From Pontibacter chinhatensis (lineage in GTDB: Bacteria; Bacteroidota; Bacteroidia; Cytophagales; Hymenobacteraceae), in contig NZ_FOOT01000003.1 in the NCBI RefSeq assembly GCF_900113285.1, positions 434,001-498,000 on the forward strand: a stretch of DNA of 64,000 nt. The letters run 5' to 3'. The translations under genes and the position numbers were made by a program. How positions within the stretch are numbered: position 1 is the first letter of the stretch; every line of letters begins with the position of its first letter. Under the pieces are notes generated by a model that saw only the letters and a list, made by a program, of their open reading frames with translations, did not search any database and had not been told where the DNA came from. Below are positions 13,928 to 56,487 of the stretch, in pieces.

Positions 13928-13950
13928 AACTTTATCAGCAAGTATAAACC

Positions 13951-26563: not shown

Positions 26564-26784
26564 GGTAAGGGAGGAGTTGGGGAAGAAGGGGCTTTAGGTG
26601 TGTGGGAGATGAGGGAAGTTTGAAGGGGTTTAAGGGATTAGTGACTTCTGCTCAGCTTGATACAGATCCTTCGCTGGCGCGAGTTTGCAACTCGTGCCTA
26701 CTTATGATGTTGGGTTTGCAACCCAACTGGCTTGAAAAGTCAGACTTTAAAGCTGAGTTATACTTTTATACTTTGCTGGCTTAT

Positions 26785-27027
26785 ACTTCTATAGCCACTG
26801 CTTCCTGCAACTTGATGCAAGCTATCCTTGCTAGCCACCGTTCATCCTCCGGCCTTACATACCTATTGTTGCATCTATACTTTCTGCCCTCCCAGGCCGG
26901 GAGGCCTCGTTTTCCCGCTCAGCGCTGTGTTCCCTCCTGCCCTCGTGCCTCGGGCTGCCCTTGACGGGCACCGGATCTCACAAGGCGCCTCCCAGAAAAA
27001 CTGGGAACAGAATCGATAGCCGCTGCC
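26785..27027 (-). repeat. Family A dispersed repeat, copy 2 (reverse)
   Basis: Reverse complement of the repeat at 13380-13634 and 45480-45714. The ends match best (CACTGCTTCCTGCAACTTG on one side, ATCGATAGCCGCTGCCTTTG on the other); the middle is more diverged. Confidence 0.75.
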
Positions 27028-27032
27028 TTTGA

Positions 27033-27102
27033 TGTCATCTCGACCATCGGGAGAGATCTGTTTAGGATTCCCGATTGATCTCTCGCGCAGCTCGAGATGA
27101 CA
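27033..27102. repeat. TGTCATCTCGA palindromic element
   Basis: TGTCATCTCGACC...GAGAGATCTG is mirrored by TTGATCTCTCGCGCAGCTCGA and GATGACA. The same element stands at 45388-45457. Similar palindromes are common between genes in Bacteroidota. Confidence 0.75.
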
Positions 27103-27566
27103 GGGGAAGGAGTAAGTATAATTCCCCTCTTGTGGACTAGCCAAAACGAGAGTTTTGAGCTAGCGAGCGTAGCTCTCAGGGGTGGGTTTATACTTTGTAG
27201 GGACAGGTCGCGACCTGTCCGTGCGAGAACTGACGCTATGAAACTTATGCTTCAGCATCAGTAATAACAGGCTCCCCTCCTTGGCTAAGGAGGGGCAGGG
27301 GTGGTTGGACCCGGTGTTGCAAAACGCAATTTAGTATCCAAGAGAGGGGAAAACTCCCCACCTCTAGGTTAAGTAAAGTGTGAGTTTTGGGCTAGCCAGC
27401 ACAGCTTTGAGGGGTAGATTTATACTTTGTAGAGACAGGATGAGTGACCGAACCAGTCGTGAAGCAGATGCCTGCACCAGCGCAGGCTGCTTATCCCAAA
27501 AGAAAAACCGGTCAGCGGCGGAGTATACTTTGCCACTGACCGGTTGCTTATACTTTATCTTATACT

Positions 27567-42072: not shown

Positions 42073-43893
42073 ATGGAAGAAAGAGGTAATATCTCCATCC
42101 ACACCGAGAATATTTTCCCGATCATCAAGAAGTTCCTGTACTCCGACCACGAGATTTTCCTGCGCGAGCTGGTGAGCAACGCCGTGGATGCCACGCAGAA
42201 GATCAAGCGCCTGTCCTCCATTGGCGAGTATAAAGGCGAACTGGGCGAGCTGAAGGTGAAAGTGGCCGTGAACAAGGAGGCCAAAACCATCACCATCTCC
42301 GACAACGGCCTGGGCATGACAGCCGGGGAAATCAAGAAGTACATCAACCAGATCGCGTTTTCGGGCGCCACCGAGTTTGTGGAGCGCTACAAGGACGCCT
42401 CTGCCGACAAGGATCAGATCATCGGTCAGTTTGGCCTGGGCTTCTACTCGGCGTTTATGGTGGCCGAGCGCGTGGAGATCGTCACCAAATCTTACCAGGA
42501 GGGCGCAGAACCGGCCCGTTGGGAGTGCGACGGCAGCACCGAGTTTTCGATCACGACGGCTGAGCGTGCCGAGCGCGGCACGGATGTGATCCTGCATGTG
42601 GCCCAGGACTCGGAAGAGTTTTTGGAGACAGCCCGCCTCCGCACCATCCTGGACAAATACTGCAAGTTCCTGCCGGTGCCGGTGGAGTTTGAGGGCGAGA
42701 CCATCAACAACCCGAGCCCTATCTGGACCAAGCAGCCATCGGAGCTGAAGGACGAGGACTACAAGGAGTTTTACAAGGAGCTGTACCCCTTCTCAGAGCC
42801 GCCGCTGTTCTGGATTCACCTCAACGTGGACTATCCGTTTAACCTGACCGGTATTTTATACTTCCCGAAGGTGAAGAACGAGTTCGAGATCCAGCGCAAC
42901 AAAATCCAGCTTTACTCGCGCCAGGTGTTTATTACCGACGAGGTGAAGGACGTGGTGCCGGAGTTCCTGATGCTGCTGCACGGCGTGATCGACTCGCCGG
43001 ACATTCCGCTTAACGTGAGCCGCTCTTTCCTGCAGGCCGACTCCAGCGTGAAGAAGATTAACACCTACATCACCAAGAAGGTGGCCGACAAGCTGGCAGA
43101 GATTTTCCGCAAGGACCGCGAGACGTTTGAGAAAAACTGGGACGACATCAGCGTGTTTGTGAAGTATGGCATGCTCTCTGACGACAAGTTCTATGAGAAG
43201 GCGAAGGATTTTGTGCTGCTGCAGAATACGGAAGGCAAATACCATACGTTAGAGGCGTATAAAAACCTGGTGCAGGCCAACCAGACAGACAAGAGCGAGC
43301 AGCTGGTGCTCCTGTATACCACCGACGCCGACAAGCAGCACGCCTTTGTGGAGGCGGCCCAAAACCGCGGCTACGACGTGCTTCAACTCGACTCCATCAT
43401 CGACAGCCACTTTATAGGCATGCTGGAGCAGAAGCTGGAAAAAACCACCCTGAAGCGCGTAGACTCCGAGACAATCGACAAGCTCATCGAGAAGGACGAG
43501 ACGAAGGAGAGCGTGCTGAGTGAGGGCGAGAAAGAGGATCTGAAGAAAGTATACGAGGAGGCCATCAACAATAAAAACATGACTGTGGAGGTGGCCCCGC
43601 TTGCCCCGGACGACGCGCCGGTGGTGATTACGCTGCCCGAGTTTATGCGCCGCATGAAGGACATGAACCGCGCCGGCGGTGGCGGTATGATGTTTATGGG
43701 CGAGATGCCGGACATGTATAACGTGACCATCAACGCCAACCACCCGCTGAACCAGCGCGTGCTGAAGGCCGAAGAGAAAAGCCAGCTGGCGCGCCAGGCG
43801 TTTGATTTGGCCCTGCTGTCGCAGAACATGCTGTCCGGAGCGGCCCTTACCACCTTCGTGAAGCGCAGCTTTGAGCTGATGACCAAAGAGTAA
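42073..43893 (+). CDS. htpG: Molecular chaperone HtpG (Hsp90)
   Basis: 606 residues, slightly shorter than the 624 of Escherichia coli HtpG. ATP-binding motifs ELVSNAVDA, TISDNGLGM and GQFGLGFYSAFMVAERV are all present, as is the middle-domain SRSFLQADSSVKKINTYITK. The C-terminal dimerisation domain ends SFELMTKE. It is a cytoplasmic dimeric ATP-dependent chaperone. It has only two exact AAGTATA/TATACTT copies, against eight in the equally long uvrC, and codon use is that of a highly expressed gene. A good terminator follows. Confidence 0.97.
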   Translation: MEERGNISIHTENIFPIIKKFLYSDHEIFLRELVSNAVDATQKIKRLSSIGEYKGELGELKVKVAVNKEAKTITISDNGLGMTAGEIKKYINQIAFSGATEFVERYKDASADKDQIIGQFGLGFYSAFMVAERVEIVTKSYQEGAEPARWECDGSTEFSITTAERAERGTDVILHVAQDSEEFLETARLRTILDKYCKFLPVPVEFEGETINNPSPIWTKQPSELKDEDYKEFYKELYPFSEPPLFWIHLNVDYPFNLTGILYFPKVKNEFEIQRNKIQLYSRQVFITDEVKDVVPEFLMLLHGVIDSPDIPLNVSRSFLQADSSVKKINTYITKKVADKLAEIFRKDRETFEKNWDDISVFVKYGMLSDDKFYEKAKDFVLLQNTEGKYHTLEAYKNLVQANQTDKSEQLVLLYTTDADKQHAFVEAAQNRGYDVLQLDSIIDSHFIGMLEQKLEKTTLKRVDSETIDKLIEKDETKESVLSEGEKEDLKKVYEEAINNKNMTVEVAPLAPDDAPVVITLPEFMRRMKDMNRAGGGGMMFMGEMPDMYNVTINANHPLNQRVLKAEEKSQLARQAFDLALLSQNMLSGAALTTFVKRSFELMTKE

Positions 43894-43920
43894 TACCCTT
43901 ATTTTAAATACCTAACAGCT

Positions 43921-43953
43921 AAGGCAGTGTCCGTTTGGGCGCTGCCTTTTTTG
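43921..43953 (+). terminator. Terminator of htpG
   Basis: AAGGCAGTGTCCG pairs imperfectly with GGCGCTGCCTT, followed by TTTTGCTTTTTG. Confidence 0.8.
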
Positions 43954-44165
43954 CTTTTTGCTCCTGCTAAAGTATAAATGAAACTTACCCGGCGCCGGCA
44001 CAGTTATAGGGGCCTGAACGGTTGTGGGTGCGTATACTTATATAATATTTGCTAAATTGCTTTATTGTTAAATTGTTGGTTTTCCTGTAGCGGGATTAAA
44101 GTATACTAAGAACAACCGTTTAGCAGTTTAACAATTTATCCGGTAATAATAGAACGAGTCAAAAT

Positions 44166-45083
44166 TTGAAAAGCGCGGTTTATACTTTGTGGATAGGGAT
44201 TTTACTGCTAAGCCTGGGCAGCTGCGGCCAGCCCAAGTGGAACAGTGACTATAACCTGAACATGGCCCGCCTGAAGGACGGCGACAAGGCAAAAACCGAC
44301 GCCCTGGCCGCCGCCGACACCACCAAGCCTATCATCGAGACTAAAAACCCGCTGGAGGAGGAGATAGAGGAGAAAAAGAAGAAGCGCAAGGCCAAGCACA
44401 GCAAGCGTGAGTTTCTGGGCTACAAGATAAAGCGCGGCTTCACGAAAAGCGGCGGCAGCTACCGCGAAACCATCGAAACCTTCGGTTACCTGCCGGTGTA
44501 CGAGGCGCCGGACCGCTACGCCCCCTACAAGTACTACTACGATACTAAGAACCGCAAACTGGCCCGCTCTGCCGCTGTTCAGGAGGACACCGACCGCTAC
44601 AAGGTGCTGCACGGTCCTTACAAGAAAACCCTGGACGGTGAGGTAGTGGAGGAAGGTTACTTTTACGTGGGCACCAAGCACCTGCGCTGGGAGAAGTACC
44701 GAAACAACGAAGACCACACCCTGGTGGGCAAGGAGCACTATGAAAAAGGCTTCCTGCGCGATGCAGTGGTAACCTACTACGGCGACACCAAGAAGATAAA
44801 AGAGGTAATTCCCTATGAGTACGGACAAGTGCAGGGGCCTTATTACCGGTTCTATGAGAACGGGCAGCTGGAGTGGAGCGGGCAGTATGAGAAAGGCCGC
44901 AAGGTAGGTGTATGGATTAACTACTACGACTTCCGCAACCGCCGCCGCTACGAGTACCAGTACCCCAAAACTGCCTACGACGCACCGCACGAGCCGTACC
45001 TGCTCCGCGCCTACGACCGCCACGCCACCCCTATCTACGAGCGCGGCAAATTCGACAAACGCTCGCAGGCGAGTAGTAAGTAG
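44166..45083 (+). CDS. Lipoprotein with MORN-like C-terminal repeat
   Basis: 305 residues from a TTG start, since no ATG precedes the lipobox (LWIGILLLSLGSCG). A Lys/Glu-rich linker near residues 55-85 (EEEIEEKKKKRKAKHSKREF) is followed by a Tyr-rich domain. At about 225-250 GPYYRFYENGQLEWSGQYEK and GRKVGVWINYYD form two MORN/YwqK-type repeats. The role is unknown, but it is probably anchored at the outer membrane. The gap from htpG (272 bases) contains inverted TAAATTGTT/AACAATTTA. Confidence 0.78.
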   Translation: MKSAVYTLWIGILLLSLGSCGQPKWNSDYNLNMARLKDGDKAKTDALAAADTTKPIIETKNPLEEEIEEKKKKRKAKHSKREFLGYKIKRGFTKSGGSYRETIETFGYLPVYEAPDRYAPYKYYYDTKNRKLARSAAVQEDTDRYKVLHGPYKKTLDGEVVEEGYFYVGTKHLRWEKYRNNEDHTLVGKEHYEKGFLRDAVVTYYGDTKKIKEVIPYEYGQVQGPYYRFYENGQLEWSGQYEKGRKVGVWINYYDFRNRRRYEYQYPKTAYDAPHEPYLLRAYDRHATPIYERGKFDKRSQASSK

Positions 45084-45387
45084 TTTATACCCCACCCCAG
45101 CCCTCCTCTAAGAACAGGAAAGGGAGTTTCTAGAATATTCTGCTGTTCCGGGCTTCTTTGTCCAAAACTTCTGCTGCTGCTGTGGACATGCTTGTCCGCT
45201 TTTCTGCTATACCGGGTCCAACCACCCCTGGCCCCTCAGAGCTACGCTCGCTACCTTCGAACTCTCGTTCTCGGTAGTCAAAGAAGGGGGTTCTGTAGTT
45301 GCTGTTTCTGAAGTATAAGTTTCATAGTCAAAGTATAAACACCCCTGTAGTCCCCTCAAGGGGACAGTCTGTACTTGCCACCCGCTC

Positions 45388-45457
45388 TGTCATCTCGAGC
45401 AGGGCGAGAGATCTATCTGGAATTCTCTTTAGATCTCTCCCGAAGGTCGAGATGACA
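45388..45457. repeat. TGTCATCTCGA palindromic element, copy 2
   Basis: TGTCATCTCGAGC...GAGAGATCTA is mirrored by TTTAGATCTCTCCCG... GTCGAGATGACA. Homologous to 27033-27102. Confidence 0.75.
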
Positions 45458-45479
45458 GCAGGGGCAGGAGCTATTGAAT

Positions 45480-45714
45480 TATTCCCAGCCTTTGGGTTGA
45501 GCGCCTCGAGAGGTTCCGGTGCCCGTGAGGGCATTGCGACCGCAGGGCAGCAAAGGAAGCGAAAGCAGCGCGATGCCCGAAGGCGAGGCCTCCCGGCCTG
45601 GGAGGGCAGAAAGCAGGAGATGCAACGATTGGTATGTGGGGCTGGAGGAGGAACGGTGGTTTGAAAGGTTAGCTTGGTTCCAGTTGCAGGAAGCGGTGGC
45701 TAGGAAAGTATAGA
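45480..45714 (+). repeat. Family A dispersed repeat, copy 3
   Basis: Starts CCCAGCCTTTGGGTTGAGCG and includes AGCGAAAGCAGCGCGATGCC and the CCTCCCGGCCTGGGAGG dyad. Very similar to 13407-13634 in the same orientation. Confidence 0.8.
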
Positions 45715-45906
45715 CCAGCAAGTATAAATGTATAGCCAAAGTATAAGTATGGCTTTTCAAGCCAGTTGGGTTACAAACCCAACATCATAGGTAGGCACGA
45801 GTTGCAAACTCGCGCCAGCGGTAGGGATAGATAAACTATAGCAGCACAAGCGGACGCCTGCGCCAGAGAAAGTATAACTCGCCTTCGGCAGAAAAGCCAT
45901 ATCCCC

Positions 45907-46269
45907 TCAATGAAACGCATCCTCAATATGATGTATAACCGGCGGAGCCGACAAAGTAACCGAGATAATATCAAACCGCACCTCATGCCCCCACCCCTCC
46001 TGAAGTATAAACTCGTCCGCAGCGTTTAGCAGCATGGCCTCCTTCTTCGTGCCAACAGCCTCCTCCGGAAACCCGTACCTATCAGTAGACCTTGTTTTCA
46101 CCTCCACGAACACCAGCAGGTCGCCTTGCTGCGCGATAATGTCCACCTCGGCGCGCCGGTGCCGGTAGTTCTGCCGCAGGATGGTGTAGCCCTTGCCTAG
46201 CAGGTAGGCAACAGCGTGGTCCTCGCCTAGGCGGCCGGTGTGGAGGTGCTTGGTTATTTGAGAAGCCAT
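45907..46269 (-). CDS. YraN family (UPF0102) nuclease-like protein
   Basis: 120 residues, the usual length. The restriction-endonuclease-like core is clear: LGEDHAVAYLLGKGYTILRQ, then RRAEVDIIAQQGDLLVFVEV and KTRS (the D-x(n)-E-x-K catalytic pattern). It is linked to Holliday junction or recombination functions by its fold, but not proven biochemically. Divergent from the isomerase gene by 54 bases. Confidence 0.93.
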   Translation of the reverse strand: MASQITKHLHTGRLGEDHAVAYLLGKGYTILRQNYRHRRAEVDIIAQQGDLLVFVEVKTRSTDRYGFPEEAVGTKKEAMLLNAADEFILQEGWGHEVRFDIISVTLSAPPVIHHIEDAFH

Positions 46270-46323
46270 ATAAAAATTGTACTTTGCGGGCAGCTAAGGC
46301 TGCTTCGCCAACTTTAGCATCGG

Positions 46324-47319
46324 ATGAAAGAACTTATTGAAAACTTTGCCCAGCAGTTGCGCCAGGCGATGCAGGCCGGGGAAAGCGAAAACGTAAACCT
46401 TGCTGGCCCCAGGTATAGCAATGTAGTGATGGCGGGTATGGGCGGCTCAGGCATCTGCGGCAACCTGGCCAAAACCTATGTAGCTAACAAGTTAACGGTG
46501 CCCGTGTTGGTGCAGAAGTGCCATAGCCTGCCCGCCTTTGTTGGCTCCAAATCATTGGTAATCGCCACCTCCTTCTCAGGCAATACGGAAGAGACGCTGT
46601 CTATGGTGCGGCAGGCAATGGAGGCAGAAGCGACCGTTAGCTTTGTAAGCTCTGGCGGAGAGATGCTTCGCATAGCCCAAGCTAACAACGTGCCGCACCT
46701 CACGCTGCCAACAGATGCCGGTCCGCCCCGGGCTTGCCTGGGCTTTATGCTGGTGCAGCAGTTATACTTGCTGCACTATGCCGGTTTGCTGGACAATGCC
46801 TTTAAAACGGAGCTGCGGCAAAGTATAGACCTGCTGGAAGAGCAGGCCGGAAGTATAAAAGTACAGGCCAGCGCCCTGGCCAGCTCGTTGCACACAAGGC
46901 TGCCCATACTTTATGCCGATGAGACCTTTATGCCCGTGGCGATGCGCTTTCAGCAGCAACTGAACACCAACGCCAAGCAACTGGCCCACGTGAACGCACT
47001 GCCCGAGCTATGCCATAACGAGGTAGAGACCTGGCAAAACCCATCGGAACTAAACGAGCGGCTGGCTGTTTTGTACATTAAAACAGGCTACGACCACCTG
47101 CGCAGCAGGCTCCGCATGGGGCTGGTGCGGGAGGCTCTGGAGCAAAAGGGACAGCAGGTGCTGGAGGTAGAGGCCATTGGCGCCACCATGCTGGAGCAGA
47201 TGTTCTACCTTATCCACCTCTTCGACTGGGTGTCGCTGTACCTGGCCGGGCTGAATAAGGTAAACCCTGGCGACACAGAAACTATAAATCACCTGAAAAG
47301 GGAATTATCTAAAGTATAA
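46324..47319 (+). CDS. Bifunctional phosphoglucose/phosphomannose isomerase (SIS domain)
   Basis: 331 residues. Two SIS domains: the first with VVMAGMGGSGICGNLAKTY and ATSFSGNTEETLSM, the second with the C-terminal CHNEVETWQNPSE block and MLEQMFYLIHLFDWVSLYLA. These match the PGI/PMI bifunctional enzyme that interconverts glucose-6-, mannose-6- and fructose-6-phosphate in the cytoplasm. Terminal codons AAA GTA TAA form the iterated motif. One base separates its stop from the lipB start, so translation is linked. Confidence 0.9.
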   Translation: MKELIENFAQQLRQAMQAGESENVNLAGPRYSNVVMAGMGGSGICGNLAKTYVANKLTVPVLVQKCHSLPAFVGSKSLVIATSFSGNTEETLSMVRQAMEAEATVSFVSSGGEMLRIAQANNVPHLTLPTDAGPPRACLGFMLVQQLYLLHYAGLLDNAFKTELRQSIDLLEEQAGSIKVQASALASSLHTRLPILYADETFMPVAMRFQQQLNTNAKQLAHVNALPELCHNEVETWQNPSELNERLAVLYIKTGYDHLRSRLRMGLVREALEQKGQQVLEVEAIGATMLEQMFYLIHLFDWVSLYLAGLNKVNPGDTETINHLKRELSKV

Positions 47320-47320
47320 C

Positions 47321-48055
47321 GTGCAAAAAAATACCGACATACAGTTCAGGCACCTGGGGCTGATAGACTACCAAGAGGCCTGGGATTACCAGGACAAGCT
47401 CTTTACCGCCACCCTGGACATTAAGGTGAAGAACCGCGCCGCCGGCCCGGACGAGCAGACGCCTACGCCAAACTACCTTCTCTTCTGCCAGCACCCGCAT
47501 GTGTACACCCTGGGCAAGAGTGGCCACGAGGAGCACCTGCTGCTGAACCAGGAAGGGCTGCAGGCCAAAGGCGCCACCTACTACAAAATCAACCGCGGGG
47601 GCGACATCACCTACCATGGGCCGGGCCAAATCGTGGGCTACCCCATCTTGGACCTGGAGAACTACTTTACCGACATTCACAAGTACCTCCGCTTTCTGGA
47701 GGAGGCCATTATACTTACCCTGGCAGACTATGGCGTAGTGGCCGGGCGCATAGCGGGCCTAACCGGCGTGTGGCTCGACCACGAAGCGCAGCGCAACCCG
47801 CGCAAGATCTGCGCGATGGGGGTAAAATGCAGCCGTTGGGTAACCATGCATGGCTTTGCCTTCAACATCAACACTGACCTGGACTACTTTAATAACATTG
47901 TGCCGTGCGGTATTTCTGATAAAGCCGTAACTTCGCTGGCCAAAGAGCTGGGGCACGAGGTGCCGCTGGCCGAGGTAGAGGAAAAACTGTTGAAACACCT
48001 GGCCGCCCTTTTTGGCGCCAACATTACAACCGCTGCGCATGAAGAAAGACATTGA
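47321..48055 (+). CDS. lipB: Octanoyltransferase LipB
   Basis: 244 residues from a GTG. The octanoyl-ACP binding motif NRGGDITYHGPGQIVGYPIL is complete, followed by GVKCSRWVTMHGFAFN with the catalytic Lys and by IVPCGI with the catalytic Cys. It transfers octanoate from acyl carrier protein to lipoyl domains, the first step of lipoate synthesis. It follows the isomerase by one base and overlaps the next gene by 17 bases, suggesting one operon. Confidence 0.96.
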   Translation: MQKNTDIQFRHLGLIDYQEAWDYQDKLFTATLDIKVKNRAAGPDEQTPTPNYLLFCQHPHVYTLGKSGHEEHLLLNQEGLQAKGATYYKINRGGDITYHGPGQIVGYPILDLENYFTDIHKYLRFLEEAIILTLADYGVVAGRIAGLTGVWLDHEAQRNPRKICAMGVKCSRWVTMHGFAFNINTDLDYFNNIVPCGISDKAVTSLAKELGHEVPLAEVEEKLLKHLAALFGANITTAAHEERH

Positions 48056-48446
48056 TTTTGGGACGGTAGAGGGGATTGCGGTGGCTGTTGCCAAAGCCAC
48101 AGAAGCAGTTGCCGACCAGCCAGCCTGGAATGTATACTTGCTCAACTACAACAACTTTCCGGTAGAGAACGTGCTGGTGGCCTCTAAGGGCTACGGCGTG
48201 ATGGACGGGGAGGAAGTGAAGACCTCGGTGCTGCGCCACATGTTCGAGCGCGTGGAGGCAAAGAGCTTTGTGCAGGTAGAGCCCATCGACCCGGCTATCT
48301 TCCACATCAACAACGAGTACTGGGTGAGCTATTACATCGGCCGCCAGATTTACGACAAGCGCTTTGTGTTTGTGCCCGACTCTATTGTGGAGGAAAACCT
48401 GATCGAGATAGGCATGCTGCAAACGCAGGGCGTACTGCACTCCTGA
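48039..48446 (+). CDS. Conserved Bacteroidota hypothetical protein
   Basis: 135 residues from the ATG at 48039 (KKDIDFGTVEGIAVAVAKAT), which overlaps the end of lipB; an upstream alternative is less likely. It is a beta-rich small domain (WNVYLLNYNNFPVENVLVAS, VEPIDPAIFHINNEYWVSYY, RFVFVPDSIVEENLIEI). Such genes are conserved in Bacteroidota, sometimes mislabelled as a phenylalanyl-tRNA synthetase fragment. No enzymatic motif is visible. Confidence 0.8.
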   Translation: MKKDIDFGTVEGIAVAVAKATEAVADQPAWNVYLLNYNNFPVENVLVASKGYGVMDGEEVKTSVLRHMFERVEAKSFVQVEPIDPAIFHINNEYWVSYYIGRQIYDKRFVFVPDSIVEENLIEIGMLQTQGVLHS

Positions 48447-48517
48447 TCCGGCCCCACCCAAGTATAAAATAAAGTATAATCCGGCTGCCGCCGCTGCTCC
48501 CATTCACCTTTTATACT

Positions 48518-49696
48518 GTGCACAGCTTGCTTCCAAAGTATAGCCTTATTTTCCGGATGCTCTTAGTCGTGTTGTGGCTGGGCGTGTGGCAGGCGCCTGT
48601 GCAGGGGCAGGTGTTGCCGCTGGAGCAGAAAAACACTATCACGGGCAACTGGCTGGTGCAGCCCGAGGGGCAGGTGCAGCTGGTGCCCTATGTTTCCAGC
48701 CAGCACGCAAAGTATAAGGCCCTGCACCAGTGGCTGTCCATTACCCAGGCGCAGCCCTTTCAAATAGCCTTTACCGCCCCTAAGGATCTGTGCCTGTTTC
48801 TGAACAACCGGCTTGTCTTTAAGGCCGACTCCTCTGCCAACTATACTTTGGATTTGGCAGCGTTCAGCAGAGGAGCCGCGCCTGTGGAGGGCAAGTACCT
48901 GCTTACGGTATGGCATCCCAGCCAGCAGCCAAACGTGAGCACCTTCCGCAACGTGCCGCTCGTAGCCGATGAGCAGCAGGACGAGGGACAGCGACCTTTC
49001 TCGGTGCAGGTGCGCGAGTACGTGAACCAGAACACCTTCATTATATTCATGCTGCTGATCGGGCTGTTGTATGGCCTGCTGCGCGTCAACTTTCCCGCCG
49101 ACTTCAAAAGCCGGTTCAGCCCCCACAACTTCCTGCGCCACGATACACAGGAGATGCTCTATTCGGGCAAGCCGTTGGGCACGGCCTCCAACCTGCTGTT
49201 TATACTTGCCTTCTCGCTTTCCATGGGGCTGCTTATTGCGGCCATACACACTAACGTGCAGCACGTGCGGCTGTTCAACCGCCTTTTCCCTGTGTCGGAG
49301 GCCGATATCACTACCAAAGTCCTTTTTTATACTTTGCTTATTTTTGGGGTAGTGCTGCTGAAGTATGTTTACCTGAAGGTGATGTCGTTTGTATTTGGCC
49401 TGGAGGAGTTGGTAAAGCTGCAGTACCGGGAGTTTCTGCGCTCGCTGCTGTTTATGGGACTTTTCCTACCCTTCATCATGCTGCTTTACCTTTCCCTGAA
49501 CATGATAATGCCGGAAGCGATATTGCTTATTTCAAACCTATCGGTAGCTTTGTTGCTGGTTATCAGCATTTTGCGTGTGTTCTACGGCGTAAATAAGAAA
49601 GTCTCAGTGATTAATTTGCATTTATTTTCGTACCTTTGCGCCACGGAAGTGATTCCGCTGGCAATTATGCTGGAACTAATCGTTTTTAACTTTTAG
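48518..49696 (+). CDS. DUF4271 domain membrane protein
   Basis: 392 residues from a GTG, or 380 from the ATG at 48554; both give a signal peptide (LLVVLWLGVWQAPVQG). An N-terminal periplasmic part of about 160 residues is followed by six hydrophobic segments with the DUF4271 pattern (INTFIIFMLLIGLLYGLLRV-like, LLFILAFSLSMGLLIAAIHT, and the end YLCATEVIPLAIMLELI). It stands before hemD and porP as in other gliding Bacteroidota. Function unknown. Confidence 0.88.
   Translation: MHSLLPKYSLIFRMLLVVLWLGVWQAPVQGQVLPLEQKNTITGNWLVQPEGQVQLVPYVSSQHAKYKALHQWLSITQAQPFQIAFTAPKDLCLFLNNRLVFKADSSANYTLDLAAFSRGAAPVEGKYLLTVWHPSQQPNVSTFRNVPLVADEQQDEGQRPFSVQVREYVNQNTFIIFMLLIGLLYGLLRVNFPADFKSRFSPHNFLRHDTQEMLYSGKPLGTASNLLFILAFSLSMGLLIAAIHTNVQHVRLFNRLFPVSEADITTKVLFYTLLIFGVVLLKYVYLKVMSFVFGLEELVKLQYREFLRSLLFMGLFLPFIMLLYLSLNMIMPEAILLISNLSVALLLVISILRVFYGVNKKVSVINLHLFSYLCATEVIPLAIMLELIVFNF
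49631..49638 (+). promoter_or_regulatory. Possible internal -7 box upstream of hemD
   Basis: TACCTTTG inside the end of the DUF4271 gene matches TAnnTTTG and lies about 110 bases before the hemD ATG. TTTG at 49615-49618 is too close (12 bases) to be a good -33 box, so this call is weak. Confidence 0.3.
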
Positions 49697-49747
49697 ACAG
49701 CAGCGGGCGGGCATTACAGCAGGCGAACTTAAAAGCATTATTTTAAT

Positions 49748-50551
49748 ATGGCTGAAAGCAAAGCAAAGGGCTCTGCGAACCCTGAAAGACACAAGATTCC
49801 TATCAAAAGTATCCTGGTTACCCAACCACAGCCTACTACCGACAACTCTCCGTACCTTTCTATTGCAGAGAAGTATGGCATTAAGGTAGACTTCAGGGCA
49901 TTTATTGAGGTGGAGCCTGTTTCCTACAAGGAGTTCCGTAAGGATAAAGTGGATATCCTGTCGCACACGGCCGTTATCTTTACAAGCCGCAACGCCGTGG
50001 ATCATTTCTTCCGCATTTGCCAGGAGAGTAAGATAGAGATGCCTGCCGACATGAAGTATTTCTGCATCTCTGACCAAACGGCTTACTACCTGCAGAAATA
50101 CATCACCCTGCGCAAGCGCAAGCTGTTTGTGGGCGAGAAAACGGCCAAGGACCTGTTTGAGGTAATCAAGAAGCACAAGAACGAGAAGTACCTCTACCCT
50201 TGCTCCAACATCCGCAAAGACGATATCCCGGAGTTCCTGAAGCAAAACAAGATCAAGCACACCGAGGCTATTATCTACAAGACTGTGGCCGCCGATCTGT
50301 CGGATCTGGACGATGTGACTTACGACTGCCTGGCCTTCTTCAGCCCATCGGGTATCACGTCGCTGTTTGCTAACTTCCCGGACTTTAAGCAGAACAACAC
50401 CCGCATTGCTGCCTTTGGCCCCACCACTGCCAAAGCGGTGCGCGACGCAGGCCTGGAGCTGGATATAGAGGCGCCGCACCCCAATGCGCCATCCATGACC
50501 GGAGCCATAGAGGTATACATACAGAACCAGATGCAGGAGGCAAAAAAATAA
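49748..50551 (+). CDS. hemD: Uroporphyrinogen-III synthase
   Basis: 267 residues, the usual bilobed length. It has IKSILVTQPQPTTDNSPYLS near the start, AVIFTSRNAVDHFFRICQES in lobe one, and CLAFFSPSGITSLFANFPDF and AAFGPTTAKAVRDAGLELDI in lobe two; these mark the HemD family. It closes the linear tetrapyrrole to uroporphyrinogen III in heme and siroheme synthesis. hemD lies next to DUF4271 and porP in many gliding relatives, away from other heme genes. Confidence 0.92.
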   Translation: MAESKAKGSANPERHKIPIKSILVTQPQPTTDNSPYLSIAEKYGIKVDFRAFIEVEPVSYKEFRKDKVDILSHTAVIFTSRNAVDHFFRICQESKIEMPADMKYFCISDQTAYYLQKYITLRKRKLFVGEKTAKDLFEVIKKHKNEKYLYPCSNIRKDDIPEFLKQNKIKHTEAIIYKTVAADLSDLDDVTYDCLAFFSPSGITSLFANFPDFKQNNTRIAAFGPTTAKAVRDAGLELDIEAPHPNAPSMTGAIEVYIQNQMQEAKK

Positions 50552-50587
50552 GCGATAACGCAACTTTTAAGCCTGGTTTGCATACGT

Positions 50588-50641
50588 ACTAAAACGCAAA
50601 AGCCGTTCTCGATCCAAGGGGACGTGTGTTTGCGTTTTAGT
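50588..50641. repeat. Perfect 13-bp inverted repeat between hemD and porP
   Basis: ACTAAAACGCAAA (50588-50600) is matched exactly by TTTGCGTTTTAGT (50629-50641) with 28 bases between. The right arm includes the -33 TTTG of the porP promoter. It could be the hemD terminator, an operator, or both. Confidence 0.8.
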
Positions 50642-50659
50642 GTTTAATAGCTATATTTG
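50629..50659 (+). promoter_or_regulatory. Promoter of porP
   Basis: TTTG (50629-50632) and TATATTTG (50652-50659) are separated by exactly 19 bases, a perfect fit to the Bacteroidota TTTG-N19-TAnnTTTG promoter. The ATG is about 50 bases downstream. Confidence 0.8.
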
Positions 50660-50711
50660 AATACGCTAGGTGCATTACTAGTTCCTAAACCTTGCCTTCT
50701 TGCCGCAGCCT

Positions 50712-51674
50712 ATGAAAAAGCTTCTACCTGTCTTGTTGCTGGTGCTTCTGGCAGTGCCACTAGCGCAGGCGCAGCAACAGCCGCAGTTTACCCATTACGG
50801 GTTTAATGGCATGCAGATAAGCCCGGCTTACGCAGGTATAACCAAGCGGCCGGAGTTTATGTCCATTTACCGCTACCAATGGCTCGGCTACGATGCCACC
50901 TTTGATGACGGCGGCGCACCGCAGACGCTTTTTTTGTCGGCGCATGCGCCGGTGAGGCTGCTGCATGGCGGCGTGGGCCTGAACCTGATGCGCGATAAAG
51001 TAGCTAACACGACCGTTCTCACCGCAGCACTCTCCTACTCCTTCCATATTAATATAGGTGAGACCGGTAAACTGGGCCTGGGCATACAGGGAAATGTAAA
51101 CAATTATAAAAAGGGCCGCTACCGCGCCATAGATGAGGGCGACCCCAACGTGCCCTTCAACAGCGAGGACACCAAGTATGACTTGGGTGCGGGCGTTTGG
51201 TATGAGTCGGAGACGTTCTATGCTGGCGGTGGCATCACCAACCTGCTCAAGTCAGAGTATGAGTTTGCCGACTCCACTAATACCGGCCGTGGCGTATTGC
51301 TCGGAGAGAACCACCTATACCTGACAGCGGGCTTCCATATGCCGCTAACCGCCGATCTGACCCTGACACCAACCGCCCTTTTGAAGCACGATACCGAAAC
51401 CCTGTCGTTCGATGTGGGCGGCCGTTTAACTTATCAGGAAAAATATTGGGTCGGATTGAATTATCGGCATGAAGAAGCTGTTAGTGCCCTTGTGGGAGTT
51501 TCTTTGCTCCAGGATAACGCCCTGCGGGTTGGATATGCGCTTGATTTAACTACATTTAACAAGTCGGCCAAGGCTCCTACCTCGCACGAGGTAATGGTAA
51601 ACTATCGCCTGCCAGAGCCTGTGGTACGGTTTAAGCCGCCTGTAAGAACGCCTCGCTACTTTTTTGAGAGATAA
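50712..51674 (+). CDS. PorP/SprF family T9SS outer-membrane protein
   Basis: 320 residues from the ATG at 50712, giving a standard signal peptide (MKKLLPVLLLVLLAVPLAQA). The opening QPQFTHYGFNGMQISPAYAG is the PorP/SprF hallmark, and the rest is an outer-membrane beta-barrel with Gly-rich strand pairs. It provides the outer-membrane anchor for adhesins or GldKLMN-linked substrates. It lies directly upstream of gldKLMN. An upstream TTG (50700) would extend it by four residues. Confidence 0.92.
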   Translation: MKKLLPVLLLVLLAVPLAQAQQQPQFTHYGFNGMQISPAYAGITKRPEFMSIYRYQWLGYDATFDDGGAPQTLFLSAHAPVRLLHGGVGLNLMRDKVANTTVLTAALSYSFHINIGETGKLGLGIQGNVNNYKKGRYRAIDEGDPNVPFNSEDTKYDLGAGVWYESETFYAGGGITNLLKSEYEFADSTNTGRGVLLGENHLYLTAGFHMPLTADLTLTPTALLKHDTETLSFDVGGRLTYQEKYWVGLNYRHEEAVSALVGVSLLQDNALRVGYALDLTTFNKSAKAPTSHEVMVNYRLPEPVVRFKPPVRTPRYFFER

Positions 51675-51834
51675 CGTTTGGTAATTGTAATAGCATTGCT
51701 ACTTTTATGGGCACTTCTTCAAAAAGTGCATAAAAAAATAATTGTACATTCCAATAATAATCAACCCTTTAAGCCGTTTAAAAAATTAAAAAAGGCGTTG
51801 GAGTGAATTGTTTTTTATTTATTCCCATTTCTCA

Positions 51835-51842
51835 TATATTTG
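51835..51842 (+). promoter_or_regulatory. -7 box upstream of gldK
   Basis: TATATTTG fits TAnnTTTG and lies about 60 bases before the gldK ATG. ATTG at 51807-51810 is 24 bases upstream, slightly too far. A small dyad ACACTcgtagaAGTGT follows in the leader. Confidence 0.5.
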
Positions 51843-51900
51843 CTACACTCGTAGAAGTGTGCTAAAATTTATTACAGAAAATTTACTTTTAACAGTCATC

Positions 51901-52917
51901 ATGAATAAACTACTAAAGCTGTCTTCCTTCGTATTGGCGGTGGTGCTGCTTGCAAGTTGTGGTATGAGACGCGGGCCGCAAGGAGACCTTGTAGGTGCTG
52001 AAGACAGACCAGCATACAACCCTCAGGAAGTGCCTTACGGTATGGTAGCATGCCCGGGCGGTACCTTCCACATGGGGCAGGCTGACCAGGATATAGCAGC
52101 ATCTATGGCAAACTTAAACAAGCAGGTAACCATTGGTGGCTTCTATATGGACGAAACCGAGATTACCAACAACGAGTACCGTCAGTTCATCAACGTGATG
52201 ATGGAGGATTCGCTCGATGTACTGGGTGAGGAATATGTGATGACGGCGCTTTACCCGGACACCACTGTATGGGTAAAAGACTACACGTACCACATGGGCG
52301 ACCCGTTGATGGAGTACTACTTCTCTCACCCGGCGTTTGATGACTACCCGGTAGTGGGAGTGGATTGGTTTGCAGCCAAGTACTTCAGCGAGTGGCGCAC
52401 CAAGCACAAGAACCAGGCAAACGCCGAAAGCGGCCGCGCACCAATGCCGCAGTTCCGCCTGCCTTCAGAGGCTGAGTGGGAGTATGCAGCCCGTGGTGGC
52501 CGTGACATGGCCGTTTACCCTTGGGGTGGACCATACCTGCGCAATGCCAAAGGCTGTTTGCTGGCTAACTTCAAGCCAGGCCGTGGCGACTACTACAGCG
52601 ATGGCTTTACCTACACTGCCCCTGTTGCCCAGTTCTTCCCGAACGACTTTGGCCTCTATGACATGGCCGGCAACGTAGCCGAGTGGTGCGAGGATGCTTA
52701 TTCTGATGCCACTGTTCCGGTTACCTGGGACTTGAACCCAGTGTATAATGATGACAATGAGCCGCGTAAAGTAGTAAGAGGTGGTTCATGGAAAGACATC
52801 GCTTACTTCCTGGAGACAGGCACACGCAACTTCGAGTTTCAGGATTCAGCCAGATCCTATATTGGCTTCCGTAACGCTATGATCTACCTGGGACGTTCTT
52901 CAGGCAGAGAGTTTTAA
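51901..52917 (+). CDS. gldK: Gliding motility/T9SS lipoprotein GldK (PorK)
   Basis: 338 residues from the ATG at 51901, giving a lipoprotein signal (VLAVVLLASC). The sulfatase-modifying-factor (FGE-like) fold is clear: PYGMVACPGGTFHMGQADQD, GGFYMDETEITNNEYRQFI, FRLPSEAEWEYAARGGRD, GLYDMAGNVAEWCEDAY and RKVVRGGSWKDIA. It is non-enzymatic here; with GldN it forms the periplasmic ring under the outer membrane. First gene of gldKLMN. No exact AAGTATA copy is found in it. Confidence 0.96.
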   Translation: MNKLLKLSSFVLAVVLLASCGMRRGPQGDLVGAEDRPAYNPQEVPYGMVACPGGTFHMGQADQDIAASMANLNKQVTIGGFYMDETEITNNEYRQFINVMMEDSLDVLGEEYVMTALYPDTTVWVKDYTYHMGDPLMEYYFSHPAFDDYPVVGVDWFAAKYFSEWRTKHKNQANAESGRAPMPQFRLPSEAEWEYAARGGRDMAVYPWGGPYLRNAKGCLLANFKPGRGDYYSDGFTYTAPVAQFFPNDFGLYDMAGNVAEWCEDAYSDATVPVTWDLNPVYNDDNEPRKVVRGGSWKDIAYFLETGTRNFEFQDSARSYIGFRNAMIYLGRSSGREF

Positions 52918-52996
52918 GAAGATTTTAATATCAATTAAATACCAATCCCCCATTTAATCCTTAATCAATCGTTCACTACTTTAATTAGAAAACAAA

Positions 52997-53797
52997 ATGA
53001 GCAAAGCTAAAGGTCGCAGTTTCTTGTTCGACGTGTTGATGCCAAAAGTATACGGTATCGGTGCTGCTGTTGTGATTATTGGTGCGTTGTTCAAGATCCA
53101 GCACTGGCCAATGGCCGACTTAATGCTGATCCTTGGTCTGAGCACAGAGGCTATTATCTTCTTCCTAAGTGCGTTCCAGCCACAGCATGCGGAGCCGGAT
53201 TGGGCTAGAGTATATCCACAACTTGCCGATGACTACAATGGCCAAGGTATAGTACCAGCTACTGCTGCTGTTGCCGGCCCGTCTGTAACAGGTAAATTAG
53301 ACGAAATGATGCGTAATGCTGATATTACGCCAGAATCAATCCACCAGCTTGGCCTGGGCCTAAACCGCCTGAGCGAAACAGCTGCTACGATGGCTGACAT
53401 GAGCAACGCCGCCGCCGCTACAGAGGAATATACTGTGCGCGTTAGAGCTGCTGCCGGTCAATTGGATAAGATCAACGACGCTTACGCTACGACAGCGGAC
53501 GCTATCGCCCAGATGGCTGTTTCTGCTACGGATGCGAAAGAATACCATACTCAGATTCAGGGAATGACCCGCAACCTGGGAGCTCTTAACGCAGTGTACG
53601 AAATGGAGCTTCAGGATGCCAACAACCACCTGAAAGCCATGAACAAGTTCTATGGCAACCTGAGCATGGCCATGGAGAACCTCACTGACGCCAGCAAAGA
53701 TACAGAACAGTTTAAGCAGGAAGTTTCACGCCTGACGCAGAACCTACACTCTCTGAACACAGTGTACGGCAACATGCTGTCTGCGATGAAAGGTTAA
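52997..53797 (+). CDS. gldL: T9SS inner-membrane motor protein GldL
   Basis: 266 residues. Two N-terminal membrane helices are in FDVLMPKVYGIGAAVVIIGA and MADLMLILGLSTEAIIFFLS, with the Glu of the second helix that is needed for proton-driven rotation of GldLM. The rest is a cytoplasmic helical tail with three near-repeats (RNLGALNAVYEMELQDANNH, LTQNLHSLNTVYGNMLSAM). It forms a pentamer with a GldM dimer. Seventy-nine bases after gldK. Confidence 0.97.
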   Translation: MSKAKGRSFLFDVLMPKVYGIGAAVVIIGALFKIQHWPMADLMLILGLSTEAIIFFLSAFQPQHAEPDWARVYPQLADDYNGQGIVPATAAVAGPSVTGKLDEMMRNADITPESIHQLGLGLNRLSETAATMADMSNAAAATEEYTVRVRAAAGQLDKINDAYATTADAIAQMAVSATDAKEYHTQIQGMTRNLGALNAVYEMELQDANNHLKAMNKFYGNLSMAMENLTDASKDTEQFKQEVSRLTQNLHSLNTVYGNMLSAMKG

Positions 53798-53849
53798 TCT
53801 TGGTTAATAGTCCTATATCTTAAGAAAACAACAGTTAATATAGTATAAA

Positions 53850-55448
53850 ATGGCTGGAGGAAAAGAGACACCAAGGCAGAAGATGATCGGTATGATGTAC
53901 CTCGTACTGACTGCGATGCTTGCCTTGAACGTGAGCTCGGCTATCCTGTTAAAGTTCCAGTTCTTGGATGAGTCTTTACAGACGGTAAACAAGAAGACTA
54001 GAACGGATAACGCCGGGGTCGTATCGAATATAAAAGCTGCCATTGCGGAGAATAAGAATCCCTCTGCCAATGACCAGCGCGTGCTGAAAACAGCAGAAGA
54101 GGTACGTAACAGAACAACAGAAATGGTTACCTACATCCAGGGGCTGCGCGACATGTTGATTAAAGAGACAGGCGGGCAGAACGAGGAAGGTACCGGGTAT
54201 GCCAACCCAAGTGGAAATGACATCGTGGCAATGACGATGATCGGAGCTGCAAGCAAGAACAATGGCAAGGCTTACGACTTGGAGCAGAAACTGAATGAGT
54301 ATGCTAAGTTCCTGAGACAGTACCATGAGCAAGTGCCTGCTAAAATCGCATTAAGCGGTTCTGAAGACCCAGTAGCTGCAAAGGATCCTGCTCAGAAGCG
54401 TAAGGATTTTGCCCAGCTGAACTTCGAAGAAACACCAATGGTGGCTGCTCTGGCAGTGCTTTCTCAGAAAGAGGCTGAAGTACTAAAGTATGAAGCTGAC
54501 GTGCTGCAGAAACTCGCCCAGCAGGTTGGTGCGGATATCATCAAGTTTGAGAAGATTTTTGCCATGGCGCGCGCCGAGTCTAAAACGGTTGCTGCTGGTA
54601 CAAAGTATGCTGCTGATATGTTCATCGCGGCATCTTCTGACAATATCACGCCAAGAATGTCTTACGGTGGTAAGCCTGTTAAAGTAGAGAACGGAATGGG
54701 TAGAGTAGAGTTTGTGGCTTCTGCCTCTAACTACGATGCCGACGGTAACTCTAAACAGAAATGGACAGGTCAGGTGACTATCAACCAGAATGGCCGCGAC
54801 ACGACTTTCACTGTAACAGAGGAGTATATTGTTGCCAAGCCTGTAATTCAGGTGCAGTCTGCCTCTGTACAGGCCCTGTACTTCCAGTGTGCTAACGAGC
54901 TGAACATTCAGGTGCCTGCTCTGGGCGCTGTATATGACCCAAGCTTCAGCGCAAGCGGCGGTCAGGCCATCAAAGGTGCTAAGAAAGGCGAAGTAACCAT
55001 CATCCCGAACGCTACGGAGGTAACAATCAACGTTAGCAGCGGTGGAAACTCTATCGGATCTGAGAAGTTTAAAGTTCGCCCAATACCGAAACCAGAGATA
55101 GTGGCTATCGTGAATGGTAAACCAATAGACGTAAAGCGTGGTGTTCCGGCACAGGCTTTCAGAGCGGTTGAAATTCAGGCCGTAGCTGACGAAGGTTTCA
55201 AACAATTATTACCTAACGAGGCACGTTATAGAGTAACGAAGTGGAGAGCGTACCTGGTACGTGGCAACCAGCCGATTGATCAGGGTGAGTTTAACGGACC
55301 TACAGCCAACCTAACAAGCTTCGCATCAAAAGCAACCAAAGGTGACCGTGTAGTAATCGAAGTTCTGGACGTAAAGCGTCTGAACTATAAAGGCACTGCT
55401 GTAGATGTGAATGTTGGTAGCCCGAACTTCAACGTTCCTTTAAATTAA
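53850..55448 (+). CDS. gldM: T9SS motor/periplasmic shaft protein GldM
   Basis: 532 residues. The N-terminus GGKETPRQKMIGMMYLVLTA and MLALNVSSAILLKFQFLDES contains the single membrane helix that enters the GldL pentamer, followed by the long periplasmic D1-D4 domains (helical start, then Ig-like domains with KPVIQVQSASVQALYFQCAN and ending VDVNVGSPNFNVPLN). It transmits rotation to the GldKN ring. Standard length; AAGTATA copies are absent, while AAGTATG occurs twice. Confidence 0.97.
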   Translation: MAGGKETPRQKMIGMMYLVLTAMLALNVSSAILLKFQFLDESLQTVNKKTRTDNAGVVSNIKAAIAENKNPSANDQRVLKTAEEVRNRTTEMVTYIQGLRDMLIKETGGQNEEGTGYANPSGNDIVAMTMIGAASKNNGKAYDLEQKLNEYAKFLRQYHEQVPAKIALSGSEDPVAAKDPAQKRKDFAQLNFEETPMVAALAVLSQKEAEVLKYEADVLQKLAQQVGADIIKFEKIFAMARAESKTVAAGTKYAADMFIAASSDNITPRMSYGGKPVKVENGMGRVEFVASASNYDADGNSKQKWTGQVTINQNGRDTTFTVTEEYIVAKPVIQVQSASVQALYFQCANELNIQVPALGAVYDPSFSASGGQAIKGAKKGEVTIIPNATEVTINVSSGGNSIGSEKFKVRPIPKPEIVAIVNGKPIDVKRGVPAQAFRAVEIQAVADEGFKQLLPNEARYRVTKWRAYLVRGNQPIDQGEFNGPTANLTSFASKATKGDRVVIEVLDVKRLNYKGTAVDVNVGSPNFNVPLN

Positions 55449-55470
55449 CAAATAGAAGCTTACGAGGAGT

Positions 55471-56331
55471 ATGAAATTAGTTAAAGTAATAGGTGTAGCA
55501 GCCGGTTTGATGTTCTCTGCAGGAGCCATGGCCCAGCAGGTGTCAAACACTACTGAGAGCAATCCTTCAGCAAGGCCTATTCCTGAATCTGATATCCTGT
55601 TCAAGAAAACAGTGTGGCGTAAAATTGACCTTCGCGAGAAGCAAAACAAGCCACTCTTTTCGGAGAACAGAGAAATCACCAAGATCATTATAGAGGCTGT
55701 TAAGAGTGGTGAACTCACTGCCTACAGAAGCGATTCTGTAAGCACACCTATCACGCGTGAAGAGTTTATGACAAACCTGACGCCTAAAGAGGCTGAAGGT
55801 GGCCTGAGCGAAGAAGAAATCGCTGCTGGTTTTGGTCAGGTAGAGGAGGAAGACGATGCTTGGGGTGCTGCCCTTGGCTCTAGCGCCGGAACTACTGAAG
55901 CCGCTCCTGTAAGTAACGAGTACTTTCCAAAGCAGCTGTACCTGCTGGAGCTGAAAGAGAACGTAGTGTTCGATAAGAAGCGCTCACGCATGTACCACGA
56001 TATCCAGACAATCAGTATTAAAGTGCCTGCCACGCTCAACCCACTGGGCTTTGAGCAAAACGTGGCTAGCTTTAAGATGAGCGATCTGGTACGCGTATTC
56101 CGTAACAACCCGGAAACGGCTATCTGGTACAACGCGCAGAACGATGCACAGCACAAGAACCTGGCAGATGCGTTCGACCTGTGGCTGTTCAGCTCTTACA
56201 TCACTAAAATCTCTAACCCTGGAGACCAGAACCTTGCTTCCATCTACGGTGGCGGTAAGAACGGTCTGCTAGCTGCTCAGAATGCCTTGGAGGCGCTGAT
56301 TGAGTATGAGTATAGCCTGTGGAGCTACTAA
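55471..56331 (+). CDS. gldN: T9SS/gliding protein GldN
   Basis: 286 residues with a signal peptide (GVAAGLMFSAGAMAQQ). Family blocks: ARPIPESDILFKKTVWRKID, LREKQNKPLFSENREITKII, YLLELKENVVFDKKRSRMYH and TAIWYNAQNDAQHKNLADAF. It is the periplasmic partner of GldK. GAGGAG precedes the ATG, an unusual Shine-Dalgarno-like sequence. The gap to gldM is 22 bases and a terminator follows. Confidence 0.96.
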   Translation: MKLVKVIGVAAGLMFSAGAMAQQVSNTTESNPSARPIPESDILFKKTVWRKIDLREKQNKPLFSENREITKIIIEAVKSGELTAYRSDSVSTPITREEFMTNLTPKEAEGGLSEEEIAAGFGQVEEEDDAWGAALGSSAGTTEAAPVSNEYFPKQLYLLELKENVVFDKKRSRMYHDIQTISIKVPATLNPLGFEQNVASFKMSDLVRVFRNNPETAIWYNAQNDAQHKNLADAFDLWLFSSYITKISNPGDQNLASIYGGGKNGLLAAQNALEALIEYEYSLWSY

Positions 56332-56352
56332 TATCCGCAAGCAGCTTAAACA

Positions 56353-56386
56353 TAAAAAGGAGACTCATTTGAGTCTCCTTTTCTTT
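56353..56386 (+). terminator. Terminator of the gldKLMN operon
   Basis: AAAAAGGAGACTCA pairs with TGAGTCTCCTTTT around TT, followed by CTTTTTG. Confidence 0.92.
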
Positions 56387-56487
56387 TTGTATCTACTCCT
56401 GTAGCAGGGATTGGACTTTAGCTGTGAATTAGAAAGTACGAAGTTCATACTTTGAGGCGCAAGTATAATTAGCTGGCAAAGTATAAA

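What the first reader, a model, noticed from the sequence alone, without database searches (positions are those of the whole stretch)
42073..56331. The iterated heptamer is nearly absent from htpG and gldKLMN
By eye, htpG has two exact copies in 1.8 kb and gldK to gldN has one in 4.5 kb, while uvrC, next to them and as long as htpG, has eight. A plain mutational process would not spare these genes, so selection against the codons the motif imposes (ATA, AGT) in highly expressed or conserved genes is likely. It also means the motif is tolerated, not required, in genes.
Basis: partly seen in the sequence, partly recalled or inferred. Interest (0 to 1): 0.6.

Follow-up and report, generated by a model that had tools for sequence, protein, structure and literature searches.

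The report
Genome-wide heptamer with lineage dialects
A seven-letter DNA word fills a Pontibacter genome wherever the proteins leave room for it and is spelled differently in related species; of the genes said to avoid it, one is average and the others mostly lack room, while its true deserts are the genes for ribosomal proteins.

Summary
The heptamer is AAGTATA: 177 copies in the window against 5 expected, 11,627 in the 5.07 Mb genome against 360 for the reversed word. htpG is not depleted: 2 copies, about 3 expected. gldKLMN is low here and when 20 other genomes are pooled (0.47/kb), but its proteins offer only 11 places where silent changes could spell the word (3.9 copies expected, 1 found), and its codon bias is in the top tenth. 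Counting such places removes the overdispersion between genes (1.55 to 0.80). Rare codons are not a sufficient cause, because the Lys-Tyr frame, which needs neither ATA nor AGT, falls to chance there too. The larger result: the word is strongly favoured (80% of Lys-Tyr sites) and has dialects on the Pontibacter tree (AAGTATA, AGGTATA, AACTATA, mixtures, losses). I read it as an uptake-like self-recognition word; uptake is untested and no recogniser was found.

The parts
42073..43893 (+). htpG; 2 copies of the heptamer (42857-42863 minus, 43547-43553 plus); average, not depleted
   Evidence: Pfam HSP90; 8 opportunities, 3.09 copies expected, 2 found
51808..52917 (+). gldK (one search used the start at 51898); 0 copies
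   Evidence: Pfam FGE-sulfatase, name from synteny; 2 opportunities, 0.90 expected
52997..53797 (+). gldL; 1 copy (53046-53052 plus)
   Evidence: Pfam GldL_N; 3 opportunities, 1.16 expected
53850..55448 (+). gldM; 0 copies
   Evidence: Pfam GldM domains; 2 opportunities, 0.64 expected
55471..56331 (+). gldN; 0 copies
   Evidence: Pfam GldN; 4 opportunities, 1.23 expected
56488..58311 (-). uvrC; 8 copies (56530, 57245, 57463, 57671 on plus; 56607, 57210, 57612, 58035 on minus)
   Evidence: Pfam UvrC domains; positions; 11 opportunities, 5.16 expected
49335..56460 (.). 7.1-kb low-density stretch holding hemD, the gene at 50712-51674 and gldKLMN, broken only by the copy at 53046
   Evidence: gap ranking

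Best explanation
AAGTATA (intergenic preference A-AAGTATA-[A/G]-A) is an interspersed word kept at very high density by a sequence-specific pressure that acts on the chromosome on both strands, inside and outside genes. SHOWN: in coding DNA it occupies 37% of the places where silent codon choice permits it, so the number per gene is set first by how many such peptide contexts (Lys-Tyr, Ser-Ile, Ile-Leu and others) the protein has, and second by a reduction in strongly codon-biased genes, down to 1.5 times codon chance in the ribosomal-protein region against 12 times in the genome sample. htpG is average; gldKLMN has few contexts and high codon bias; uvrC has many contexts. SHOWN: within Pontibacter the word has dialects on the species tree, with mixed-dialect species and losses. 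INFERRED: the pressure comes from a DNA-recognising protein whose specificity drifts, most likely a DNA-uptake receptor that favours self DNA, so that copies spread and persist through biased uptake and recombination, as proposed for the Neisseria uptake sequence. INFERRED: in the most highly expressed genes the gain is offset by a cost of the word itself or of the recombinant alleles, only partly through codon cost. The confidence given is for the whole chain; the gene-level explanation alone I put at about 0.85.
For: Opportunity model. Codon-usage null: 1053 found against 88.6, while six rearranged heptamers stay near their own nulls. Dialect counts in 50 genomes and their place on the tree. 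Own-dialect site use 29%, 34%, 49% against 2-16% for foreign words. Copies kept between relatives beyond local identity in 10 of 10 locus pairs, though only 7 against 6.0 in the ribosomal region. Likeness to Neisseriaceae dialects, including a genome with two dialects in near-equal numbers (PMC3630211, abstract and one section read). comEC, dprA and HHH families in 50 of 50 genomes.
Against: No uptake was tested and no recogniser found. Pilus/secretion ATPase PF00437 gives only weak partial matches (3 of 50 just over the cut-off). comEC, dprA and HHH genes do not track the word: they have open frames in the nested loss clade, and G046, with broken comEC and dprA, keeps 2.02 copies/kb. DUF5689, the surface protein implicated in Riemerella (PMC8459023, passages), is found in 22 of 50 genomes and not in the window's. 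Ribosomal-region site classes are uneven: Tyr-Thr (14 of 34) and Ile-Leu (28 of 410) remain 4.4 and 2.9 times their null.
Confidence: 0.45

Rival explanations
1. One reading: copies are removed from conserved or highly expressed genes because the word forces rare codons (ATA, AGT).
For: Site use falls with CAI. In the window's genome Ser-Ile sites (AGT ATA) fall from 38% to about 5% while Lys-Tyr sites go from 80% to 58%, and the slope difference is significant there.
Against: htpG is average. Ribosomal genes use ATA and AGT about as often as others, and the frame without them is also at chance. The slope difference is not found in G129 or G085. Gene differences shrink when opportunity is counted.
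Confidence: 0.2
2. A HIP1-like word made or kept by an orphan methyltransferase and an associated repair process, the dialects reflecting changes of methyltransferase.
For: HIP1 reaches similar density and has alternates matched to methyltransferases (PMC4390886, abstract and passages). The AACTATA dialect often overlaps itself as a palindrome (82 overlaps in 400 kb).
Against: AAGTATA is not a palindrome; lost copies differ at many positions rather than at one preferred base. No methyltransferase was searched for here.
Confidence: 0.18
3. A selected binding site for recombination (Chi-like) or for chromosome packing or segregation.
For: Intergenic copies near one GC-skew switch of G000 lie 460 to 228 on one side of the fork, and orientation follows GC skew in G129 (r 0.51).
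Against: No such correlation in G085 (r 0.01) and none of note inside genes of G000. Exclusion from ribosomal genes and spelling changes within one genus are not expected of such sites (inference).
Confidence: 0.15
4. A plain mutational bias towards the word.
For: Would act on both strands and in all DNA.
Against: The ribosomal region is nearly at chance although its silent sites vary; copies are conserved beyond local identity; the spelling differs between sister clades. One-mismatch neighbours reach at most 2.7 times expectation except AAGTATG at 5.2.
Confidence: 0.04

Closest known systems
DNA uptake sequence dialects of Neisseriaceae (PMC3630211: abstract and section 'DUS dialects' read; PMC2397512: abstract lines and passages seen)
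   Same: Thousands of copies per genome; spelling variants with a constant core in related species; a genome with two dialects; genomes without an obvious word; location in permissive parts of the genome.
   Different: Shorter core (7 letters with weak flanks against 10-12); higher copy number (up to 13 thousand against at most about 6 thousand reported there); no convincing pilus ATPase; uptake function untested.
HIP1 and alternate HIPs of cyanobacteria (PMC4390886: abstract and passages seen)
   Same: Very dense iterated word, replaced by other words in some lineages.
   Different: HIP words are palindromes tied to methyltransferases; AAGTATA and AGGTATA are not palindromes and no methyltransferase was examined.
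Chi and other recombination or segregation sites (recalled)
   Same: Short over-represented words.
   Different: No consistent orientation with replication; spelling changes within one genus.
Natural transformation of Riemerella anatipestifer (PMC8459023: passages seen)
   Same: Same phylum; needs ComEC, DprA and a helix-hairpin-helix protein, families present in 50 of 50 Pontibacter genomes.
   Different: The terms 'uptake sequence', 'uptake signal' and 'DUS' occur 0 times in that paper; its DUF5689 surface protein family is not found in the window's genome.

Membership tests
DNA uptake sequence (DUS/USS) | thousands of copies of a short word, far above chance | tested here: met
   11,627 copies against 360 reversed
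DNA uptake sequence (DUS/USS) | raises uptake or transformation by DNA that carries it | not testable with these tools
   needs an uptake assay
DNA uptake sequence (DUS/USS) | type IV pilus machinery with a pilin receptor | tested here: not met
   PF00437: only partial weak matches, 3 of 50 just over the cut-off; pilins themselves not searched
DNA uptake sequence (DUS/USS) | dialects with a constant core that follow the phylogeny | tested here: met
DNA uptake sequence (DUS/USS) | rare in recently acquired DNA | tested here: inconclusive
   one motif-poor stretch (11 copies in 20 kb, L195) holds HipA, RadC and AbiEii genes; no systematic test
DNA uptake sequence (DUS/USS) | enriched in genome-maintenance genes | not tested
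   uvrC is high; one gene only
HIP1-type iterated palindrome | palindromic word | tested here: not met
   AAGTATA is not a palindrome; overlapping palindromes occur (47 in 884 kb of G000)
HIP1-type iterated palindrome | matching orphan methyltransferase | not tested
   no methyltransferase search was made
Chi-like polar site | strand bias with replication direction | tested here: inconclusive
   460:228 in intergenic DNA near one skew switch of G000, r 0.51 in G129, r 0.01 in G085

The most novel reading that the evidence does not exclude
Pontibacter has a self-DNA recognition system of the uptake-sequence kind that works without a type IV pilus, in a phylum for which I found no described uptake sequence; its word drifts between species through mixed-dialect intermediates and comes close to saturating the best sites the proteome allows, so that protein sequence and expression level decide which genes are marked.
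Probability: 0.4. Interest if true: 0.88.

Novelty: new variant of a known kind. Interest (0 to 1): 0.7.

Why it matters
Iterated words that act as uptake signals are described for Pasteurellaceae and Neisseriaceae (abstract of PMC7811141 as listed). A third case, in Bacteroidota and without a recognisable pilus ATPase, with living intermediates between dialects (AAG, AAG+AAC, AAC) and nested losses, would let one ask how a self-recognition word changes and what it costs. The opportunity model shows how to read such deserts: divide by what the protein allows before invoking selection. The ribosomal region gives a measurable limit: the excess over codon chance drops from 12-fold to 1.5-fold there although silent sites vary.

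Tried and rejected
htpG as an avoided gene: rejected. Protein conservation as the cause: rejected, since uvrC and htpG are similarly conserved (mostly 82-98% identity) and differ in density. Slow silent evolution as the reason for the ribosomal desert: unlikely; fourfold-site identity there is 0.51-0.62 with five more distant relatives (0.41-0.54 in other genes) and codons vary at 8 of 10 Lys-Tyr sites listed. Replication polarity: inconsistent. DUF5689 as receptor: does not track the word. Loss of comEC, dprA or HHH genes as cause of the loss of the word: not supported in the nested loss clade. Faster loss of copies in G089: 10 of 15 ancestral-like sites missing against 27-50% in eight relatives, but G089 branches off first in that group, so this is confounded. 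Protein-level adaptation: places for the own word are about 20% denser in AGG and AAC species than in most others, but AAG species show almost no such excess over the no-word group; few genes, relatedness not tested. Literature: ten searches, of which sought such a word in Pontibacter, Hymenobacter or Bacteroidetes; I saw none in the listings. Only open-licence PMC papers were searched.

Weak points. Gene calls are from my own simple caller; it missed many ribosomal genes, which I took as long ORFs, so the ribosomal set is 31 genes of the region, including fusA, secY and rpoA as recognised by eye. CAI includes codons of the motif sites; leave them out. Dropped rows: the 4 mixed species were left out of the 18-species test, where gldK was recovered in 11 of 18; matches covering under 60% of a protein were dropped. 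One search's list was cut, so frames of the HHH gene were not seen for every genome. One search passed over genes that run off a locus end.

Full report
WHAT WAS CHECKED. The finding does not spell the heptamer. The most over-represented 7-mer of the window is AAGTATA/TATACTT, 177 copies against 5.5 from composition and 5.03, at most 11, in 100 dinucleotide shuffles. The genome has 5623 + 6004 copies against 169 + 191 for the word read backwards.

GENE LEVEL. In 464 kb of the genome (375 called genes) coding density is 1.60/kb and intergenic density 5.84/kb; in 884 kb (690 genes) 1.59 and 5.14. Against the coding rate htpG (2 found, 2.9 expected) is ordinary, gldKLMN (1 found, about 6.8 expected over 4.3 kb, my arithmetic) is low and uvrC (8 found, 2.9 expected) is high. 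The contrast rests on gldKLMN and uvrC, not on htpG.

I then counted where each protein would permit the word by silent changes alone. On 375 genes this opportunity count, with one rate per frame, lifts the log-likelihood from -596 to -472 and brings dispersion from 1.55 to 0.80; on the 690 genes dispersion is 0.69. gldKLMN has 11 opportunities (2, 3, 2, 4), 3.9 copies expected, 1 found (P 0.10); htpG has 8, with 3.1 expected and 2 found; uvrC has 11, with 5.2 expected and 8 found. So the window's pattern needs no special avoidance. Across 18 AAGTATA-only relatives the gld genes have 25 copies against 81 expected from length (0.31) and 49 from opportunity (0.51; gldK in 11 of 18); uvrC has 78, 2.68 and 1.86 times expectation; htpG 44, 1.29 and 1.15 times. 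A residue remains, strongest in gldN (1 found, 12.7 expected) and opposite in uvrC.

EXPRESSION. With codon adaptation measured against the S10/str region (L2 by Pfam; the other genes recognised by eye from their sequence), used/expected falls along six CAI classes: 1.11, 1.17, 0.96, 0.96, 0.68, 0.58. The region itself, 31 genes in 20 AAGTATA-bearing genomes (one of them, G043, mixed), uses 99 of 1100 opportunities, 427 expected; in the window's genome 4 of 52, 21 expected. Against its own codon usage 99 is 1.5 times the 67.5 expected, whereas the genome sample has 12 times. The three largest gaps of the 884-kb sample are two in this region (10.1 and 5.7 kb) and one around rplA-rplJ-nusG-tuf (6.5 kb); other large gaps hold a HAMP/chemotaxis protein, a PKD/ice-binding protein and a pseudouridine synthase with scpB, so not every desert is a translation gene. 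gldKLMN lies at the 92nd-98th CAI percentile, htpG at the 82nd, uvrC at the 67th.

CODONS. The proposed cause, ATA and AGT, is at best part of it. ATA is 1464 of 7115 Ile codons, 239 of them inside the word. Genes of the S10/str region use ATA (56 of 365) and AGT (29 of 325) about as often as other genes and favour TAT, ACT and CTT, which are motif codons. Yet Lys-Tyr sites (AAG TAT A) fall from 80% used to 21%, equal to codon chance; Tyr-Thr and Ile-Leu sites keep some excess. In the window's genome ATA-forcing frames fall faster with CAI than others (slopes -0.44 and -0.16; difference interval -0.52 to -0.06), but not clearly in G129 (-0.41 to 0.23) nor in G085 with AACTATA (-0.13 to 0.46). 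Lack of time is an unlikely reason, since silent sites of the region vary among these species.

HOW STRONG THE PRESSURE IS. Codon usage predicts 89 copies at the 2857 opportunities; 1053 are there. Six rearranged words stay near their nulls (found and expected: 20, 37; 43, 70; 26, 23; 21, 30; 45, 38; 32, 40). One-letter variants range from AAATATA (39, 63) through AACTATA (83, 43), GAGTATA (129, 52) and AGGTATA (140, 80) to the tolerated AAGTATG (431, 64). Between relatives, copies are kept more often than local identity predicts in all ten locus pairs compared, weakly in the ribosomal one (7, expected 6.0) and clearly in others (for example 23 against 9.4, 19 against 7.5); control 7-mers are kept less often in most AAG pairs but about as often in one AGG pair (8 of 9 in one direction). 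Lost copies differ in many ways. Intergenic copies prefer A before and [A/G]A after.

DIALECTS. In 200 genomes of the family AAGTATA is strongly enriched only in the window's genus; 150 genomes of five other genera reach at most about 2.5 times the reversed word. Low-AAGTATA species of the genus carry other words. Counts in 50 genomes give AGGTATA (5.7-9.3 thousand) in 12, AACTATA (12.5-13.2 thousand) in 4, both AAGTATA and AACTATA in 4, AAGTATA alone in 19, and no strong word in 11, some of which have weak excesses (for example G117 for AGGTATA, G131 for AAGTATA) (grouping). On a FastTree tree of eight concatenated proteins the AGG species form one clade (support 1.0) beside an AAG species (0.78), the AAC species form two pairs, each next to mixed species (0.997 and 0.846), and one clade without a strong word (0.99) is nested within AAG species (0.996); several deep nodes have support under 0.6. 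Own-dialect site use is 29% (AAG), 34% (AGG) and 49% (AAC); foreign words in these groups and in the no-word group are at 2-16%; the mixed species use AAG at 45% and AAC at 33%. gldK and gldL are poor in the AGG dialect too (0 and 1 copies in 12 loci), while the gene at 50712-51674 is rich there (3.05/kb) and almost empty in AAG species (0.11/kb): the protein decides which word fits.

MECHANISM. Dialects with a constant core, mixed genomes, losses, both strands and permissive locations match the Neisseriaceae uptake sequences (PMC3630211, abstract and one section read; PMC2397512, passages seen). Uptake was not tested. The pilus ATPase family gives only weak partial matches. comEC, dprA and HHH families are present in 50 of 50 genomes. 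comEC and dprA frames are interrupted in the same two genomes, G089 and G046, and in G089 the listed ComEA-size HHH frames are short as well; no control gene was found broken in G089 (9 and 31 tested) or in G046 (9 tested), genes cut by a locus end not judged. This suggests that these genes work together in the genus, but they are open in species without the word too, and G046 keeps a high density. The recogniser is unknown; DUF5689 does not fit. I commit to an uptake-type self-recognition word as most likely, at moderate confidence, with HIP1-like and chromosome-protein rivals open.

Noticed in passing
window 13103-13950, 26470-27566, 45640-45906: Intergenic stretches with several copies of the heptamer share palindrome-like modules with one another (seen by eye), as if dispersed repeat elements carried the word.
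   Followed up: no
G089 and G046 (whole-genome rows): comEC and dprA frames are interrupted in the same two of 50 genomes, and in G089 the listed ComEA-size HHH frames are short too: likely loss of transformation in two species.
   Followed up: partly
G000 C11 sample, around offset 284000 of the joined stretch: Intergenic copies of the heptamer are oriented 460 to 228 relative to a GC-skew switch; weaker in G129, absent in G085.
   Followed up: partly
884 kb of G000; 400 kb of G085: Close pairs of copies are mostly tandem, with favoured spacings of 7, 8, 11, 14, 18-19 and 22 in G000; overlapping palindromes occur 47 times in G000 and 82 times in G085.
   Followed up: no
window 50712-51674 and orthologues: The gene upstream of gldK is almost free of AAGTATA in AAG species but rich in AGGTATA in AGG species (35 copies in 12 loci).
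   Followed up: partly
L195 (G085:C1:2387001-2407000): Motif-poor stretch (11 copies in 20 kb) with HipA, RadC and AbiEii genes, perhaps an acquired island.
   Followed up: partly
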